Notes under the pieces: generated by a model | Told to the model about the DNA's origin: nothing | The model's database searches: none | Seen by the model: only the letters and a program-made list of their open reading frames with translations | Part shown: piece after piece, positions 16,080 through 34,858 of the stretch | Position numbering within the stretch: the first letter of the stretch is position 1 | Layout of the letters: each line of letters begins with the position of its first letter | Assembly: GCA_021776465.1 (NCBI GenBank) | Contig: JAJFFU010000050.1 | Coordinates: 1-35,427 of the forward strand | Reading direction: 5' to 3' | Length of the DNA stretch: 35,427 nucleotides | Source: Parvularculaceae bacterium | GTDB lineage: Bacteria; Pseudomonadota; Alphaproteobacteria; Caulobacterales; Parvularculaceae | Translations under genes and position numbers: made by a program

Positions 16080-16649
16080 TTAATCACATTTGTGCGACTT
16101 GAGATATTCAATTGCACATTCTAATAATTCTATATTGTCTTTAAATTTTCCAATTCCCGTATTGCAAGAATGACATAGGAGTGCACGAATCTTTCCAGTA
16201 GTATGACAATGATCTATACACAATCGGCAGATTTCTCCATCTCGCCTAGACTTTCTAGTTTCAGGTTTATTGCAAATTGCGCATAAATTATTTTGGTTAG
16301 TCTTTAGATTTTCAAATTGTTCTAAAGAACAGCCTAGTTTTCTAAGAGACTCTGAAATACTATTTTTTCGCCAATTCTTTTTTCGTTGATTAGCCTCATA
16401 AGTTAAATATTTTTCCGGATTTTTTTTTCTATCATTTCTTTGCCACTCATTTCTTTTTCCTGGATTATTTTCACGCCATTTTTTAGAGTATTCCACTTTA
16501 TACTCCATATTTTTTTCGTTCCAGCGTTTATCTTTTTCCTTTTTGCATAATCGACATCTTAAAGTATATCCAGATTTGGCTGATTTATTATTTTCCTTAA
16601 TAATATTTTCTAATTCTAATACTCCATGTTTCTTACAAGTTTTTTCCAT
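16080..16649 (-). CDS. HNH / endonuclease VII-like free-standing endonuclease
   Basis: The start is ATG 16649 with AAGGAG seven bases before it, giving 189 residues; a longer frame to 16679 lacks this. The C-terminal third has CAIC (123-126), IDHCHTTGKIRALLCHSCN (about 145-163) and GIGKFKDN, the zinc-bound beta-beta-alpha metal fold of recombination endonuclease VII and homing HNH enzymes. The N-terminal 110 residues are Lys/Arg/Asn-rich, with a further CRLC pair near residue 32. It has its own promoter and interrupts the conserved order between tail genes, as expected for a selfish homing endonuclease; Holliday-junction resolution is the alternative. Confidence 0.88.
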   Translation of the reverse strand: MEKTCKKHGVLELENIIKENNKSAKSGYTLRCRLCKKEKDKRWNEKNMEYKVEYSKKWRENNPGKRNEWQRNDRKKNPEKYLTYEANQRKKNWRKNSISESLRKLGCSLEQFENLKTNQNNLCAICNKPETRKSRRDGEICRLCIDHCHTTGKIRALLCHSCNTGIGKFKDNIELLECAIEYLKSHKCD

Positions 16650-16678
16650 TTTTAGCTCCTTATGTTTAAAGAAGCTCA

Positions 16679-16707
16679 ATATTAAGGGTTTAACCTGCTA
16701 GTGTCAA
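16679..16707 (-). promoter_or_regulatory. Consensus sigma70 promoter for the HNH gene
   Basis: On the minus strand TTGACA (16702-16707), a 17-bp spacer and TAATAT (16679-16684) make a near-perfect promoter in the short gap before the HNH gene. The predicted start near 16672 is about 23 bases before the ATG. This lets the gene be expressed independently of late transcription. Confidence 0.8.
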
Positions 16708-24836: not shown

Positions 24837-25007
24837 TCAAGATTTGGTTCTATTTTGACTATTTTGCTCTAATTTTATGACACTTTCACGCAAAGATGCT
24901 ACTTTTTCAAACAAAAGTTCAACTTCTTGGGTTAGTTTATCAATTTTATATGAATAATTATTAACAACGTAAGATTCATAATCCCATCCATGTACATCAT
25001 TTACCAT
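24837..25007 (-). CDS. Small coiled-coil protein between terminase and portal (56 aa)
   Basis: ATG 25007, with AAAAGGAAAG before it, overlaps the last codons of the terminase gene. The 56 residues include a heptad-like region (IDKLTQEVELLFEKVASLRE, about 22-41), so a short coiled coil is likely. Unrecognised. The gap to the portal start (about 50 bases) holds nothing else obvious. Confidence 0.6.
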   Translation of the reverse strand: MVNDVHGWDYESYVVNNYSYKIDKLTQEVELLFEKVASLRESVIKLEQNSQNRTKS

Positions 25008-26535
25008 AAGCTTTCCTTTTCACATAGTCTAAATGTCTAGATTTCATTTGTAATTTATGCGCAAATTCTGAAGTATCTTTAGGCTCTACATGCGTATTAA
25101 TCACAGTTCTGTCAATCAAAGCTAACTTAACTGCATCATATAAACTGTCAGCGATATCGTCGTGTCGATGCGTATCGTTATGAGTAATCTTGCTCATATG
25201 GTCTATACACATCTTGGTATGCTTTCCACCATAAGGCAAAGTTATCAATCTTTTGGCCACATACGGCTGTGCTTCTAAATACCTCGTGGTCTTGCTACCA
25301 GATGCTCTTGTACGAGACACATCCACAATCTTCAAGCTCGGAATGGTCTTGAGCATTGAGCTTAATGTCACACCCGTTGATTTCTTCTCAATGGCCACAA
25401 ATGAAGGTTGTTTCTTATGGCGCAAACATCCTGCATAAAACTCCATAAACTCCGCCTCAAGGTCTTTTGGCTCAACCCTTAATTCCATACAGTCAATCCA
25501 AAACAAGCCGTACATACCCTCTAAATGCGTCCCATTGTACAAAATCTTATGAACACCCCAGAAGCTAAACACAGACGCATCATTGTAGGTTTTGTCGGTT
25601 TCAGCCGTGTCAATTGTTAAGAATGTACACTCAATTTCTGGATGGTCGTCTGTTATTACAAAATCTTCAGTTTTAAAGATACCACCACCAGCAGGGCTTG
25701 GGTTCTGTTGATGTTGAGATGCAAATACATAGGGATTGAACTCAGCCTCTTGAAGTAACCTGTCTTTAGTCCAGATATTAGGGGCGAGTGGATTACCAGC
25801 CTCATCAATAGAGGGCAAGATAACTTTTTTCCAGTCATCACCATCTTTTCCTTCTAACAGAAACGCTGGCAAATCATCTTCGTGCAATCTTTGACCAATA
25901 AATATAATAGGCACATTAGGGCCACGAGGTCTTGTTTTAACAGTCTGGTTATAGTTATCAATCACATGATGCCTACGCGTGTCCGAATGAACCTCATCTG
26001 GCTTGTGAGCATCATCGTAAATTATCCCACCTGAGAATCGTTCTAGGTTAGGCAAACCAGCATCTTGACCGACAATAGAACCTGAGCTACCAAATGCCAT
26101 GACACGACCACCCTGCAATGTTGCAAAGTTACTCTTTGATTTAGATGCAGGGTCAATTGAGATACCAAAAAGCTTTTGATAAGTAGGAATGCTCATAATG
26201 GCTTTAATCTCAGCTGTGTTTTTTTCAGCCAGAGATTGAGAATGCGCGAGATAGAGAAACTTGCAATCAGGATAATGCGTATAACACCAAGCTACGAAAT
26301 AACAGGCCATAGTGGATTTACCGGAGCCAGGAAATACATTTAGAACCAATCTCAACGTATCAAGTGTAAAGACCTTGTTAAGTTCTCGTGCGATAGTGAT
26401 GTAATGGGACTCTCTACCAACAGGCTCTGACAACTCAAACTTACGATTGTTTCTTAGCAAATAGAACACCTGTAGGAACTCTAAGAATGAGCCTTTAAGC
26501 CTATAGCGTTCTGTTTCTCGGTCGTCGTATTGCAT
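24997..26535 (-). CDS. terL: Terminase large subunit
   Basis: 512 residues. The ATPase half has Walker A PGSGKST (residues 69-75), an AHSQSLAEKN adenine-side motif and Walker B IIYDD (171-175), followed by HSDTRRHHVIDNY. The nuclease half has FLTIDTAETDKTYNDASVFS, FVAIEKKSTG and the final RHDDIADSLYDAV acidic motif, giving the Asp/Glu cluster of the RNase H-like fold. It powers DNA packaging and makes the headful or end cuts. The small subunit lies about 3.3 kb away (29801-30193), separated by accessory genes. Confidence 0.95.
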   Translation of the reverse strand: MQYDDRETERYRLKGSFLEFLQVFYLLRNNRKFELSEPVGRESHYITIARELNKVFTLDTLRLVLNVFPGSGKSTMACYFVAWCYTHYPDCKFLYLAHSQSLAEKNTAEIKAIMSIPTYQKLFGISIDPASKSKSNFATLQGGRVMAFGSSGSIVGQDAGLPNLERFSGGIIYDDAHKPDEVHSDTRRHHVIDNYNQTVKTRPRGPNVPIIFIGQRLHEDDLPAFLLEGKDGDDWKKVILPSIDEAGNPLAPNIWTKDRLLQEAEFNPYVFASQHQQNPSPAGGGIFKTEDFVITDDHPEIECTFLTIDTAETDKTYNDASVFSFWGVHKILYNGTHLEGMYGLFWIDCMELRVEPKDLEAEFMEFYAGCLRHKKQPSFVAIEKKSTGVTLSSMLKTIPSLKIVDVSRTRASGSKTTRYLEAQPYVAKRLITLPYGGKHTKMCIDHMSKITHNDTHRHDDIADSLYDAVKLALIDRTVINTHVEPKDTSEFAHKLQMKSRHLDYVKRKAYGK

Positions 26536-32085: not shown

Positions 32086-33033
32086 TTAACACCTTTTTGA
32101 ATATTCAAAATATGGTTTGCAATTGCATCTGCCGTATTTATCAACCATATGGTTATCACTCAATCTTTGAAACTTTTTGCAGAAAGCTAAAAATTTAATG
32201 AAGTTGTCCCCAACATCCCGATTTTTATCACGAATGAGAATCGTGTCTCCCTCATGCAAGGCTGATTCCTCTTTTTTATCTAAAGCTATCCCATTAGCCT
32301 GTTTACCTTGGGCAATAATTTTTAAATCATTTCTGGTCACTGAAATATGATTATCGACCATATTGACCATATTACTCGTTCCGGCTACGTCATAAAGATT
32401 AGGAGGTGTGGTTACACGGATATTACCACAATGCAAATAAGATTCCGGTTTCTTTGGGTGGGCAACTAATATGACATGAACATTTCTAGTTTGAGCAAAA
32501 TTTAACAATTTTTGTACAATCATTTGTTGTTCAGATAGTTTTTCAGACGCATCGTTTAACATCATCAAGTTATCAAAAATGAACAAATCAGGTTTGGCTT
32601 CTTGAAATATCACTTCTGCACTTTCTAATACTTCATTAATTTTGGCTGATCCAAGCAGGTCGTACGTGAAAATCTTTTCATCATAGTAATTACAAAACGC
32701 TGACATACACTCGAATGAACTCTCACCGAGGCCCATTCCATATTGAAAAAATCGATTCCATAGCTTTCCTTGCTTTAGCTCAAAACTGCAAACAAAACTT
32801 TTTATGTTCTTGCTGGCCAAATCTAGCGCAATATGGTTAACAAACGCAGATTTTCCATGACCGGAATAGCCAGAGACAATCGTCATTTCCCCTTTTACAA
32901 GCCAAAACTTTTCATGCAAACTACCCCAAGGTAACACTAAGCCTGTTTGGGACTGCGTTCTAGCTTGCCAGCTTTCCTGTCGCACGTCCCATCCTGATAC
33001 AATGTTATGTTGTAATAACTTATTTCTATTCAT
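32086..33033 (-). CDS. DnaB/Twinkle-type replicative helicase
   Basis: From ATG 33033 (AAAGGA before it), 315 residues; a longer in-frame start would run into the initiator gene. The RecA-like core has Walker A SGYSGHGKSA (about 54-63), SFELKQGK, Walker B-type DLFIFDNLMML (about 150-160), the HPKKPES motif after NVHVILVA (about 185-200) and a DNHISVTRND arm. The typical DnaB N-terminal domain is missing, as in Twinkle-like or DnaB-C-only phage helicases. It should unwind the fork and be loaded by the neighbouring initiator. Confidence 0.88.
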   Translation of the reverse strand: MNRNKLLQHNIVSGWDVRQESWQARTQSQTGLVLPWGSLHEKFWLVKGEMTIVSGYSGHGKSAFVNHIALDLASKNIKSFVCSFELKQGKLWNRFFQYGMGLGESSFECMSAFCNYYDEKIFTYDLLGSAKINEVLESAEVIFQEAKPDLFIFDNLMMLNDASEKLSEQQMIVQKLLNFAQTRNVHVILVAHPKKPESYLHCGNIRVTTPPNLYDVAGTSNMVNMVDNHISVTRNDLKIIAQGKQANGIALDKKEESALHEGDTILIRDKNRDVGDNFIKFLAFCKKFQRLSDNHMVDKYGRCNCKPYFEYSKRC

Positions 33034-33046
33034 TTTATTTCCTTTA

Positions 33047-33817
33047 TTAAATTTCACATATTCTAAAATCATATGAGGACCGTTCTTGTTCATTGATTAA
33101 CTTGTCATATTCTTCCTTAGATGTTTCCCACATTCGGTTATTTAAATAGGTAGTCGCATGTACTGGTCTTTTAGATTTAAAATCTTTTCTTTCTTCCTCT
33201 AGTTTCTTTACATACCATTTAGAACCTTCCAACAAATCAATGAATTCCTGTTTAGATAATTTTTTAAGTTTGGGTAAACACCGATTTCTAACATTGCAGT
33301 CCGGATAAATCTTTTGCCATTCCTTCCAGCGATATAACTCCAAGGATTCTACATTTTCAGATGTTGCCGGTGTAGCTTTAGCGGAATCGGCTATTTTGTC
33401 TTTTTTTTGCTTTGTATTATCTTTTACTTTGTAGTTACTCATATCGGTACCCACCGTAACGGTACCCACCGATTCCATGGTACCCGTCGACACATCGAGC
33501 GGAAGCATATGAATATGGTAATCAGTGATAGTAAAAAAACCATTTTCATCTCTTCCTTGAACGATGGTTAACAATCCTAAATTTTTTAATTCTGTAAAAT
33601 ATTTATCCAATTTATTTTGACCAATTCCAAATTCACCACGAATTTGAGATTTGTGTATTTTCCAATCATCGGGAAGCATTAATAAAGAAATATACAGACC
33701 GCGTAATTCTAAATTTTCGATTAGTTTAATGCTTTCATTCGCACACACTGTGTAACCTTTTGCATCATTTTTAAAACGGGCAAAACCACCAATTTCTGAT
33801 ATTTTTTCTACTGACAT
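33047..33817 (-). CDS. O-like replication initiator with internal iterons
   Basis: 256 residues. The N-terminal about 100 form a winged-helix-like domain (CANESIKLIENLELRGLYIS, IRGEFGIGQNKLDKYFTELK, LGLLTIVQGR). A polar linker follows (about 108-165) whose codons contain three iterons, and the C-terminal region (LYRWKEWQKIYPDCNVRNRC, then SKQEFIDLLEGSKWYVKKLE) is a probable helicase-contact domain. This plan (DNA-binding, ori-encoding linker, helicase-binding) is that of lambda O. The helicase gene follows directly. No family profile was run. Confidence 0.75.
   Translation of the reverse strand: MSVEKISEIGGFARFKNDAKGYTVCANESIKLIENLELRGLYISLLMLPDDWKIHKSQIRGEFGIGQNKLDKYFTELKNLGLLTIVQGRDENGFFTITDYHIHMLPLDVSTGTMESVGTVTVGTDMSNYKVKDNTKQKKDKIADSAKATPATSENVESLELYRWKEWQKIYPDCNVRNRCLPKLKKLSKQEFIDLLEGSKWYVKKLEEERKDFKSKRPVHATTYLNNRMWETSKEEYDKLINEQERSSYDFRICEI
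33445..33489. repeat. Iterons inside the initiator gene, likely replication origin
   Basis: CGGTACCCACCG at 33445-33456 is repeated exactly at 33460-33471, and a third copy with changes (TGGTACCCGTCG) is at 33478-33489. Each unit contains the palindrome GGTACC. The adjoining stretch at about 33390-33444 is very AT-rich and could melt. Position inside the linker of an O-like gene matches lambda-type origins. Confidence 0.7.
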
Positions 33818-33874: not shown

Positions 33875-34150
33875 TTATTCAAGTATTAGAAGGCCCTCTA
33901 ACTTGTCGTTCATAAAATCAATTGTAGTATTCATAGTTATAGCTCCGTCCTCTTCTAATTCATCAAGATTGGTAACAAATTCACTAATAGACATACATGC
34001 CAAATCACTCATTTTTTCTATGGATTTATTATTAATTAATATTTTTCGATCATTTTCAGTAGCTTCGGAAGCTAAAATCAAAAGTATTAATTTCCATTCT
34101 GGATGATAATAAGGCGTTTCTAAAAATTGATTAAAAATAGTGGTATTCAT
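33875..34150 (-). CDS. Possible winged-helix protein, first gene of the replication operon (91 aa)
   Basis: 91 residues: PEWKLILLILASEATENDRK, then KMSDLACMSISEFVTNLDEL like a helix-turn-helix, and GAITMNTTIDFMNDKLEGLL like a wing. A GGAG ribosome site (TTGGAGAAG) precedes ATG 34150. It may regulate or help the initiator encoded next. The ribosome-site region is complementary, with one mismatch over 11 bases, to the small RNA encoded at 34274-34340. Confidence 0.6.
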   Translation of the reverse strand: MNTTIFNQFLETPYYHPEWKLILLILASEATENDRKILINNKSIEKMSDLACMSISEFVTNLDELEEDGAITMNTTIDFMNDKLEGLLILE

Positions 34151-34176
34151 TTTTCTTCTCCAATATGTTTATGAAA

Positions 34177-34201
34177 TCGACACAATTTATAGATATGTCG
34201 A
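34177..34201. promoter_or_regulatory. Inverted repeat upstream of the replication operon
   Basis: TCGACA (34177-34182) and TGTCGA (34196-34201) flank 13 AT-rich bases. It lies 27 bases upstream of the 91-residue gene and between it and the small-RNA promoter, so it could be an operator for the leftward transcript. No clear -35/-10 pair was found there. Confidence 0.45.
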
Positions 34202-34239
34202 AATTTTTGGTTTTTTTAACTGCTTTGGAGAAAGGGCTG

Positions 34240-34267
34240 TTGACACGAAAGAAAAGATGTATAATAT
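34240..34267 (+). promoter_or_regulatory. Strong sigma70 promoter for a small RNA
   Basis: TTGACA (34240-34245), 16-bp spacer, TAATAT (34262-34267). Predicted start near 34274. No ORF with a ribosome site follows before the terminator at 34308-34340, so it appears to make a non-coding RNA. Confidence 0.8.
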
Positions 34268-34273
34268 GCTTGT

Positions 34274-34340
34274 CTTTCTGCTCCAGCCTTATCTTAAGCA
34301 GATCGTGCCCCAGTCGAGCGTCAACTCACTGGGGTTTTTT
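34274..34340 (+). ncRNA. Predicted phage small RNA, about 67 nt
   Basis: The unit is bounded by a consensus promoter and an intrinsic terminator and contains no credible coding frame. It folds into two hairpins: TCTGCT (34277-34282) with AGCAGA (34297-34302), loop of 14; then the terminator stem. The 5' part TTTCTGCTCCA (34275-34285) is complementary at 10 of 11 positions to the ribosome-site region of the divergent 91-residue gene. A riboregulator of early or replication genes is inferred. Rfam families such as phage C4-type antisense RNAs were not checked. Confidence 0.65.
34308..34340 (+). terminator. Intrinsic terminator of the small RNA
   Basis: CCCCAGT (34308-34314) pairs perfectly with ACTGGGG (34328-34334), 13-base loop, followed by TTTTTTATT. 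It works in the plus direction only. It also shields the convergent 54-residue gene. Confidence 0.9.
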
Positions 34341-34372
34341 ATTATGAACCTCCGACAAAATAATTCAAGCTA

Positions 34373-34537
34373 TTAATACTGAAGCGTACGACATAACCAC
34401 TTAACCGCATCTTCATACTCAGAATTACTTCCAGATGGTATTTTGTTTTTAAAATGAACATACGTTTTATCCGTATCAGCTGTAGGCCCATAATGACAAA
34501 ACTCTGCAACTTCTTTTTTCCATTCCGCTATATTCAT
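34373..34537 (-). CDS. Small hypothetical protein in the control region (54 aa)
   Basis: ATG 34537, with AAAGGAAT before it, opens a 54-residue frame: MNIAEWKKEVAEFCHYGPTA, then VHFKNKIPSGSNSEYEDAVK and WLCRTLQY. The fold looks helical. Unrecognised. It is divergent from the ribbon-helix-helix gene and shares its upstream region with the palindromes there, so it may be under the same control. Confidence 0.6.
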   Translation of the reverse strand: MNIAEWKKEVAEFCHYGPTADTDKTYVHFKNKIPSGSNSEYEDAVKWLCRTLQY

Positions 34538-34611
34538 CACAAATTCCTTTTAGTTAATACCGCCTCAAATGGACAGTAAATCAATCCTAACCTGAAAAAA
34601 ATAAAAAGTAA

Positions 34612-34652
34612 ATAGCTATATAGTTTGCTATCGTATAGCAATATGGTAATAT
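34612..34652 (+). promoter_or_regulatory. Promoter overlapped by ATAGC-type palindromes (regulator autocontrol)
   Basis: A perfect inverted repeat, TTGCTAT-CGT-ATAGCAA (34625-34641), covers the -35 (TTGCTA, 34625-34630) and spacer of a promoter whose -10 is TAATAT (34647-34652, 16-bp spacing). A further palindrome ATAGCTAT is at 34612-34619. The downstream gene encodes a ribbon-helix-helix protein, which fits self-repression. Confidence 0.7.
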
Positions 34653-34679: not shown

Positions 34680-34844
34680 ATGAAGAAAAAAGAAATACAA
34701 GTTTTTACAGCGCGTCTACCCTATGAAACATGGCGTTTATTGAGAATGATGGCTGTTAAAAAAGATCAAACAATGAGTAAAATCATAATTGATATGGTAG
34801 AAAAACAACGAAAAAAATATGATGACGGTCTTGACACTAAGTAA
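34680..34844 (+). CDS. Arc/CopG-type ribbon-helix-helix regulator
   Basis: 54 residues from ATG 34680 (GGAG before it). QVFTARLPYETWRLLRMMAV (7-26) is the strand plus helix A, and QTMSKIIIDMVEKQRKK (about 30-46) helix B of a ribbon-helix-helix dimer, like Arc and Mnt. Such proteins bind short palindromes in tandem. Related palindromes with ATAGC half-sites lie over its own promoter (34612-34641) and across its stop codon within the next promoter (34842-34857). It is therefore a likely switch controlling both this gene and the rightward operon that runs toward the recombination genes. Confidence 0.82.
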   Translation: MKKKEIQVFTARLPYETWRLLRMMAVKKDQTMSKIIIDMVEKQRKKYDDGLDTK

Positions 34845-34858
34845 TAGCATGCTATTAT
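34831..34858 (+). promoter_or_regulatory. Promoter with an operator palindrome in its spacer
   Basis: TTGACA (34831-34836), 16-bp spacer, TATTAT (34853-34858). The perfect palindrome TAATAGCA-TGCTATTA (34842-34857) fills the spacer and -10 and shares its half-site with the palindromes before the regulator gene. It should drive the gene at 34886. Confidence 0.7.

What the first reader, a model, noticed from the sequence alone, without database searches (positions are those of the whole stretch)
34240..34340. A complete promoter-to-terminator unit for an unannotated phage small RNA
TTGACA-16-TAATAT is followed about 40 bases after the -10 by a perfect 7-bp hairpin and a T run. No coding frame with a ribosome site fits between, and the RNA has a second internal stem (34277-34302). 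It lies in the control region between the replication operon and the regulator gene, where phages such as P1/P22 keep antisense immunity RNAs.
Basis: partly seen in the sequence, partly recalled or inferred. Interest (0 to 1): 0.8.

Follow-up and report, generated by a model that had tools for sequence, protein, structure and literature searches.

The report
Antisense RNA over phage replication leader
A bacterial virus appears to carry a tiny antisense RNA gene opposite the start of its DNA-copying genes, and uncultured relatives have a similar unit beside the gene that starts viral DNA copying, so such viruses may throttle their own replication much as plasmids do.

Summary
Window 34240-34340 is a complete RNA gene: TTGACA-16-TAATAT, two hairpins, six Ts; predicted RNA about 67 nt; no shuffle of 40 gave so strong a unit. 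An immunity role is not supported. The unit lies opposite the leader of the replication genes (small ORF - [unit, other strand] - g338 - initiator - helicase). Initiators homologous to this one stand beside an equivalent unit in IMG/VR phages. A finished pattern scan found 23 places; 22 face an ORF starting 16-28 nt from the -35, and 16 of 18 such proteins scanned match replication-initiation or DnaD-like families. Downstream lie a covarying palindrome arm (0 of 20,000 permutations), a hairpin and a GC-rich hairpin. Rfam has no match at the units scanned. The window copy shares position and anatomy, not sequence: membership inconclusive. Best reading: a countertranscript that limits initiator synthesis, working like plasmid pMV158 RNAII. 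Transcription, pairing and effect are inferred. New variant of a known kind.

The parts
34240..34267 (+). sigma-70-type promoter TTGACA-16-TAATAT (alternative -10 TATAAT at 34260-34265, spacer 14)
34247..34278 (.). palindrome centred on the -10: GAAAGAAAAG (34247-34256) / CTTGTCTTTC (34269-34278), 9 of 10 pairs
   Evidence: P 0.021 against shuffled flanks
34274..34340 (+). predicted small RNA, about 67 nt (start inferred as about 7 nt after the -10)
   Evidence: inferred from promoter and terminator; fold
34277..34302 (+). hairpin 1 (TCTGCT...AGCAGA)
34307..34340 (+). intrinsic terminator: 7-bp perfect GC-rich stem, inner 3 bp, six Ts
34219..34301 (.). larger inverted repeat, arms 34219-34239 and 34284-34301 (imperfect), bracketing the promoter
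   Evidence: duplex -22.3 kcal/mol; not tested against shuffles
34225..34233 (-). on the minus strand TTTCTCCAA, pairs with 34155-34163, the ribosome-site region of g338 (possible anti-SD)
34153..34163 (-). ribosome-site region of g338 (minus strand TTGGAGAAGAA)
33875..34150 (-). g338, 91 aa, first gene downstream of the leader; weak match to phrog_4617 replication initiation (E 0.015)
   Evidence: not matched by the initiator HMM
33047..33817 (-). replication initiator (phrog_270, E 8.8e-15), homologous to the initiators next to the other phages' units
32086..33093 (-). DnaB-like helicase / primase-helicase
34373..34540 (-). small ORF (55 aa) upstream of the unit on the replication strand
   Evidence: no family match
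34341..34368 (-). candidate sense promoter TTGAAT-16-CATAAT (9/12) that would give a leader crossing the whole RNA gene
   Evidence: such matches are no rarer than chance there

Best explanation
The unit is the gene of a cis-antisense RNA (countertranscript) of about 67 nt. It is transcribed against the replication genes, across their leader. The RNA would pair with the leader of the mRNA for g338, the initiator and the helicase and lower their synthesis, keeping replication proteins in proportion to phage genome number. Shown by sequence: promoter, two hairpins, terminator, position opposite the leader, initiator homology, and an equivalent unit beside initiators in other phages. Inferred: that it is transcribed, that the sense mRNA crosses it, that they pair, and how repression follows. 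For the window a translational switch is predicted: with the RNA's target blocked, the g338 ribosome site folds onto an upstream anti-SD (mean unpaired probability 0.32 to 0.06). That step is not general: none of 13 core members shows it, so in them duplex formation just upstream of the ribosome site, cleavage or attenuation is likelier.
For: Anatomy. TerL neighbours, fetched without regard to the unit, include L010, L079, L022 and L017 with a strong promoter on the opposite strand, its -35 lying 22-24 nt from the next start codon. A finished pattern scan gave 23 places, 22 facing an ORF of 112-297 aa that starts 16-28 nt from the -35; 16 of 18 proteins scanned match replication-initiation or DnaD-like PHROGs, and the 22 proteins join in one BLASTP cluster at E <= 1e-4 in a database of 22. 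Palindrome arms pair better with their own partner than with partners from other phages (13 members: -14.85 v -9.48 kcal/mol; 20 distinct: -14.03 v -10.42; 0 of 20,000 permutations each; own better than the row median in 18 of 20). 21 of 22 RNA bodies fold with z below -1.5 against simple shuffles. The window initiator matches the HMM of those 22 (E 4.4e-17 among the window's frames). The window leader folds strongly (z -5.04), which is partly expected of the complement of a folded RNA.
Against: No expression data. The window RNA does not resemble the family in sequence (16 comparisons; lowest P 0.014, not significant for 16 tests), sits 89 nt rather than 16-28 nt from the next start codon, and lies before g338, not before the initiator. 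Only 4 of 18 initiator leaders have the strong opposite promoter at 22-28 nt. Two related isolate phages have none of 10/12 or better. The palindrome is not significant alone in 6 of 13 core members nor in L017; own arms are the best in the row for only 4 of 20, and L022 and L017 do no better than swapped arms. SD masking: 0 of 13 core members, and L194 is predicted to open. The L010 protein matches only PHROGs of unknown function and the L017 ORF none. The sense promoter is not established.
Confidence: 0.6

Rival explanations
1. The act of transcription, not the RNA, matters: transcription from this promoter opposes or times the replication genes or opens an origin nearby, as proposed for lambda pO; the RNA is a by-product.
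For: Position beside an initiator and palindrome on the -10; a review says OOP is no primer but pO matters for lambda replication (PMC12197685, passages). SD masking is not general.
Against: Two hairpins beyond the promoter recur in the other phages, which suggests that the RNA itself is selected.
Confidence: 0.14
2. OOP- or sar-like developmental RNA that silences a gene other than the replication genes (immunity or lysis-lysogeny choice).
For: Similar size; an Arc-like gene lies nearby (34680-34844; PHROG match weak, E 0.013), as arc does in P22 (recalled).
Against: No gene lies opposite the RNA: it ends 33 bases short of the 34373-34540 ORF, and the other phages' units face initiators.
Confidence: 0.1
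3. Trans-acting small RNA on host or other phage messages.
For: Free-standing gene with its own terminator.
Against: Among 44 phage ribosome-site regions g338 ranks 28th by duplex energy, so trans pairing there is not favoured; in other phages the unit is tied to initiators. Higher-ranked phage sites and host targets were not followed.
Confidence: 0.1
4. Chance promoter and terminator that are not one gene.
For: Single promoter matches of this kind are common.
Against: 0 of 40 shuffles give promoter plus strong terminator; recurrence of such units opposite replication leaders.
Confidence: 0.06

Closest known systems
Plasmid pMV158 antisense RNAII (PMC4485353, passages read)
   Same: Short RNA with its own terminator, transcribed against the replication operon in the gap between a small first gene and the initiator gene, complementary to mRNA immediately upstream of the initiator's translation signals.
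   Different: RNAII is 48 nt with one hairpin; the small first gene there encodes the repressor CopG, whereas the 55-aa ORF here is unknown and the Arc-like gene is divergent; the carrier is a tailed phage, not a rolling-circle plasmid.
RepABC ctRNA, repB-repC gap (PMC3155836, passages read)
   Same: Countertranscript over the initiator leader; alternative leader folds, as predicted for the window.
   Different: There the bound leader forms an intrinsic terminator; the SD switch predicted for the window is absent in the 13 core members. No repABC genes.
Lambda OOP RNA (PMC5869508 and PMC12197685, passages read)
   Same: Phage antisense RNA whose promoter lies at the start of a replication initiator gene and which ends at its own hairpin terminator.
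   Different: OOP overlaps the end of cII by 52 bases and silences cII; here no gene lies opposite the RNA. No LexA site was looked for here.
P22 sar RNA (PMC13397905 and PMC12197685, passages read)
   Same: Small hairpin-rich phage antisense RNA; its place between arc and ant is recalled.
   Different: Its target is antirepressor (ant) mRNA; here the message carries replication genes.
Antisense RNA over the dnaA 5' region of Bacillus subtilis (PMC12112137, start of abstract in listings only)
   Same: Antisense RNA over the untranslated leader of a replication initiator.
   Different: Chromosomal; not compared in sequence.

Membership tests
Phage initiator-leader antisense units found here (L230/L010 type) | Strong promoter on the strand opposite the replication genes, upstream of them | tested here: met
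Phage initiator-leader antisense units found here (L230/L010 type) | -35 lies 16-28 nt from the initiator start codon | tested here: not met
   89 nt from g338; the initiator starts at 33817
Phage initiator-leader antisense units found here (L230/L010 type) | Palindrome centred on the -10 | tested here: met
   9 of 10 pairs, P 0.021
Phage initiator-leader antisense units found here (L230/L010 type) | Hairpin then GC-rich terminator hairpin | tested here: met
Phage initiator-leader antisense units found here (L230/L010 type) | Sequence similarity of the RNA | tested here: not met
Phage initiator-leader antisense units found here (L230/L010 type) | Initiator of the same protein family among the genes controlled | tested here: met
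   E 4.4e-17
pMV158 RNAII-type countertranscripts | RNA complementary to the mRNA just upstream of the initiator's start, inhibits its translation | tested here: inconclusive
   position fits; transcription and inhibition cannot be tested here
RepABC ctRNA | repABC genes | tested here: not met
   no RepA/RepB/RepC match among the control-region proteins scanned
RepABC ctRNA | Leader switch set by the bound RNA | tested here: inconclusive
   SD masking predicted for the window and L017, for 0 of 13 core members
Lambda OOP | Overlaps and silences a cII-type gene | tested here: not met
   no gene opposite the RNA
P22 sar | Target is an antirepressor gene | tested here: not met
   no antirepressor match among the eight control-region proteins scanned
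Any Rfam 15 family | Score at or above the curated cut-off | tested here: not met
   window: none; best Spot 42, 15.8 bits against 80

The most novel reading that the evidence does not exclude
Many uncultured tailed phages share an undescribed family of countertranscript RNA genes placed directly beside the replication initiator, with a covarying palindrome around the RNA's own promoter. It would be a plasmid-style copy-number brake on phage DNA replication. The window carries a diverged copy, upstream of an extra gene.
Probability: 0.5. Interest if true: 0.72.

Novelty: new variant of a known kind. Interest (0 to 1): 0.56.

Why it matters
Countertranscript control of an initiator is classical plasmid biology. 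The well-known phage antisense RNAs OOP and sar act on cII and antirepressor. A recurring antisense gene tied to phage initiators would mean that tailed phages also meter their initiator by RNA, and it is a compact, testable element. I saw no description of it in the listings, which cover open-licence PMC papers only.

Tried and rejected
Immunity or sar-like RNA: rejected for lack of an opposite target gene. Trans pairing to the g338 ribosome site: looked good by eye (11 of 13 bases) but ranks 28 of 44. SD masking as the general mechanism: three of 15 leaders fell by 0.2 or more (window, L017, L194), but that stretch was set by distance from a chosen start and missed the true site in L194, L252 and L273. 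Measured at the AAGGAA core 0 of 13 core members fall by more than 0.03 and L194 rises by 0.29. I lowered the main odds from 0.62 to 0.60 for this. A 'structured' 310-nt leader in L013: not above shuffles (z -0.46). General scan for promoter, palindrome and hairpin in loci L009-L106 plus the window: 12 distinct hits against 6 in one shuffle, so not specific alone; the window unit is not among them, since that scan demanded 5 of 6 in the -10. The loose pattern has no exact match in 299 genomes, the window's own included, and the L230 unit none in phage records. No covariance model was built: alignments A2-A4 do not keep the hairpins in register, and A2 held truncated rows by my coordinate error. 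The hairpin finder missed about half of the terminators because of a strict frame; terminators were judged from the folds.

Rows dropped: one search shows 18 leaders out of 24 HMM hits (five repeats of other contigs dropped by me; L045 at a contig end); five of the 18 were seeds of that HMM. One search gave 89 distinct hits; 14 face an ORF of at least 200 aa, of which I took 13 as core (L010 standing for the like L009) and left out L310. Of 23 places, L252/L289/L347 and L294/L352 have identical arms and L277 is the contig of L035; L350, the one without an ORF, was kept in the permutation test. L194, L289, L347 and L352 were not scanned against PHROGs; L035 was scanned for L277. In four units (L252, L273, L289, L347) the start taken lies 16 nt away; a second ATG lies three codons further in.

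Full report
Observation. The window is G000:C195, a 35,427-base contig of an unnamed 3.43-Mb genome, with tailed-phage genes: terminase (24997-26535), portal, capsid, YqaJ exonuclease and RecT, initiator and helicase. In the whole window this is the only promoter of at least 10/12 followed by a terminator hairpin of -15 kcal/mol or better; none of 40 shuffles produced one.

Surroundings. On the minus strand run an unknown 55-aa ORF (34540-34373), g338 (34150-33875), the initiator (33817-33047) and the helicase (33093-32086). The RNA gene lies on the other strand between the first two. The GC hairpin has no T run on the minus strand, so reading through is possible; a 9/12 minus promoter at 34368-34341 would start a leader that contains the full complement of the RNA, but such matches are no rarer than chance. 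The leader folds strongly (z -5.04), as the complement of a folded RNA should.

Relatives of the window itself. The 191-base region has no match in the 198 other genomes searched, nor a 1001-base stretch around it in phage records; a 30-base promoter stretch has no exact match in IMG/VR. The initiator was not found in the other 61 genomes of its family. TerL found 8 IMG/VR loci; a TerL alignment then gave the best 80 of 242 confirmed IMG/VR relatives and 13 genome contigs.

Equivalent units. In L010 the opposite strand carries TTGACG-16-TATAAT 22 nt from the initiator start, then a hairpin and a terminator. L079 and L022 have the same layout. L017, which also has two small Arc-like ORFs and the exonuclease, has TTGACA-16-TAAAAT 24 nt from the next ORF, whose protein has no PHROG match. 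Of 18 initiator leaders looked at, 4 have such a promoter at 22-28 nt (L010, L022, L079, L194), so the unit is not universal. Two isolate phages with related initiators have no promoter of 10/12 or better on the opposite strand there.

The family. A stricter pattern fixes the ribosome-site complement and promoter but nothing downstream of the -10, and ran to the end: 23 places, 22 facing an ORF of 112-297 aa that starts 16-28 nt from the -35. 16 of 18 proteins scanned match replication-initiation or DnaD-like PHROGs (7 of 9, not L332 and L035; L294 weakly; 9 of 9); the 22 proteins form one BLASTP cluster. Because the pattern holds the ribosome-site complement, some excess of ORF starts is built in; the function of the ORFs is not. 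Downstream of the -10 the units show a second palindrome arm, a hairpin and a GC-rich hairpin. Own arms pair better than swapped arms on average, though they are the best of their row in only 4 of 20. 21 of 22 RNA bodies fold with z below -1.5. At curated cut-offs Rfam matches none of the units in the loci scanned, which include the 13 core members and L017; L277, L289 and L345-L356 were not scanned.

Does the window belong? Shared: opposite strand, initiator family, palindrome on the -10 (P 0.021), two hairpins of like size. Not shared: sequence, distance to the start codon, the gene next to it. I count membership as inconclusive and likeness of working as probable.

How it likely works. The RNA is complementary to the leader by construction if the leader is transcribed through. 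The closest working models are pMV158 RNAII and RepABC ctRNA. In the window, blocking the RNA's target lowers the unpaired probability of the g338 ribosome site from 0.32 to 0.06, through pairing of 34225-34233 with 34155-34163. In the 13 core members no such fall is predicted and in L194 the site opens, so a common step, if any, is more likely a block just upstream of the ribosome site, cleavage or attenuation. The role of the -10 palindrome is open: in the mRNA it forms a hairpin whose 5' arm is the target of the RNA's 5' end; it could also be a protein site.

Known or new. OOP and sar differ in target. The passages that I saw of a 2025 review of phage small RNAs describe OOP and sar but no RNA against an initiator leader. 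The searches listed no such phage family; they cover open-licence PMC only.

Noticed in passing
window 34625-34641 and 34842-34857: Palindromes TTGCTATCGTATAGCAA and TAATAGCATGCTATTA upstream of the Arc-like gene (34680-34844) and inside the promoter of the next genes (34831-34858); possible operators of the Arc-like protein (by eye).
   Followed up: no
window 34177-34201: Palindrome TCGACA-N13-TGTCGA between the RNA gene and g338; looks like an operator (by eye).
   Followed up: no
L189, L221, L029, L092, near replication genes: Hairpin GGGCTGGATGCCC or close variants, in L189 and L221 next to a palindrome but without a strong promoter; may be decayed or different forms of the same unit.
   Followed up: partly
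L024, L026, L029, L037, L080, L089 initiator leaders: A different shared leader ending in a TATAATT-type motif before the start codon (by eye).
   Followed up: no
L009 19263-19336: Match to Rfam int-alpA RNA (38.2 bits, cut-off 35.8) in a contig that also carries the antisense unit.
   Followed up: no
L103, L104, L105: The phage terminase sits on contigs labelled Saccharibacteria, Thermoplasmata (a 5.2-Mb record) and Nitrosotalea; perhaps mis-binned phage DNA.
   Followed up: no
window 16080-16679: ORF rich in Cys/His pairs that looks like an HNH endonuclease inside the structural genes (by eye, not searched).
   Followed up: no
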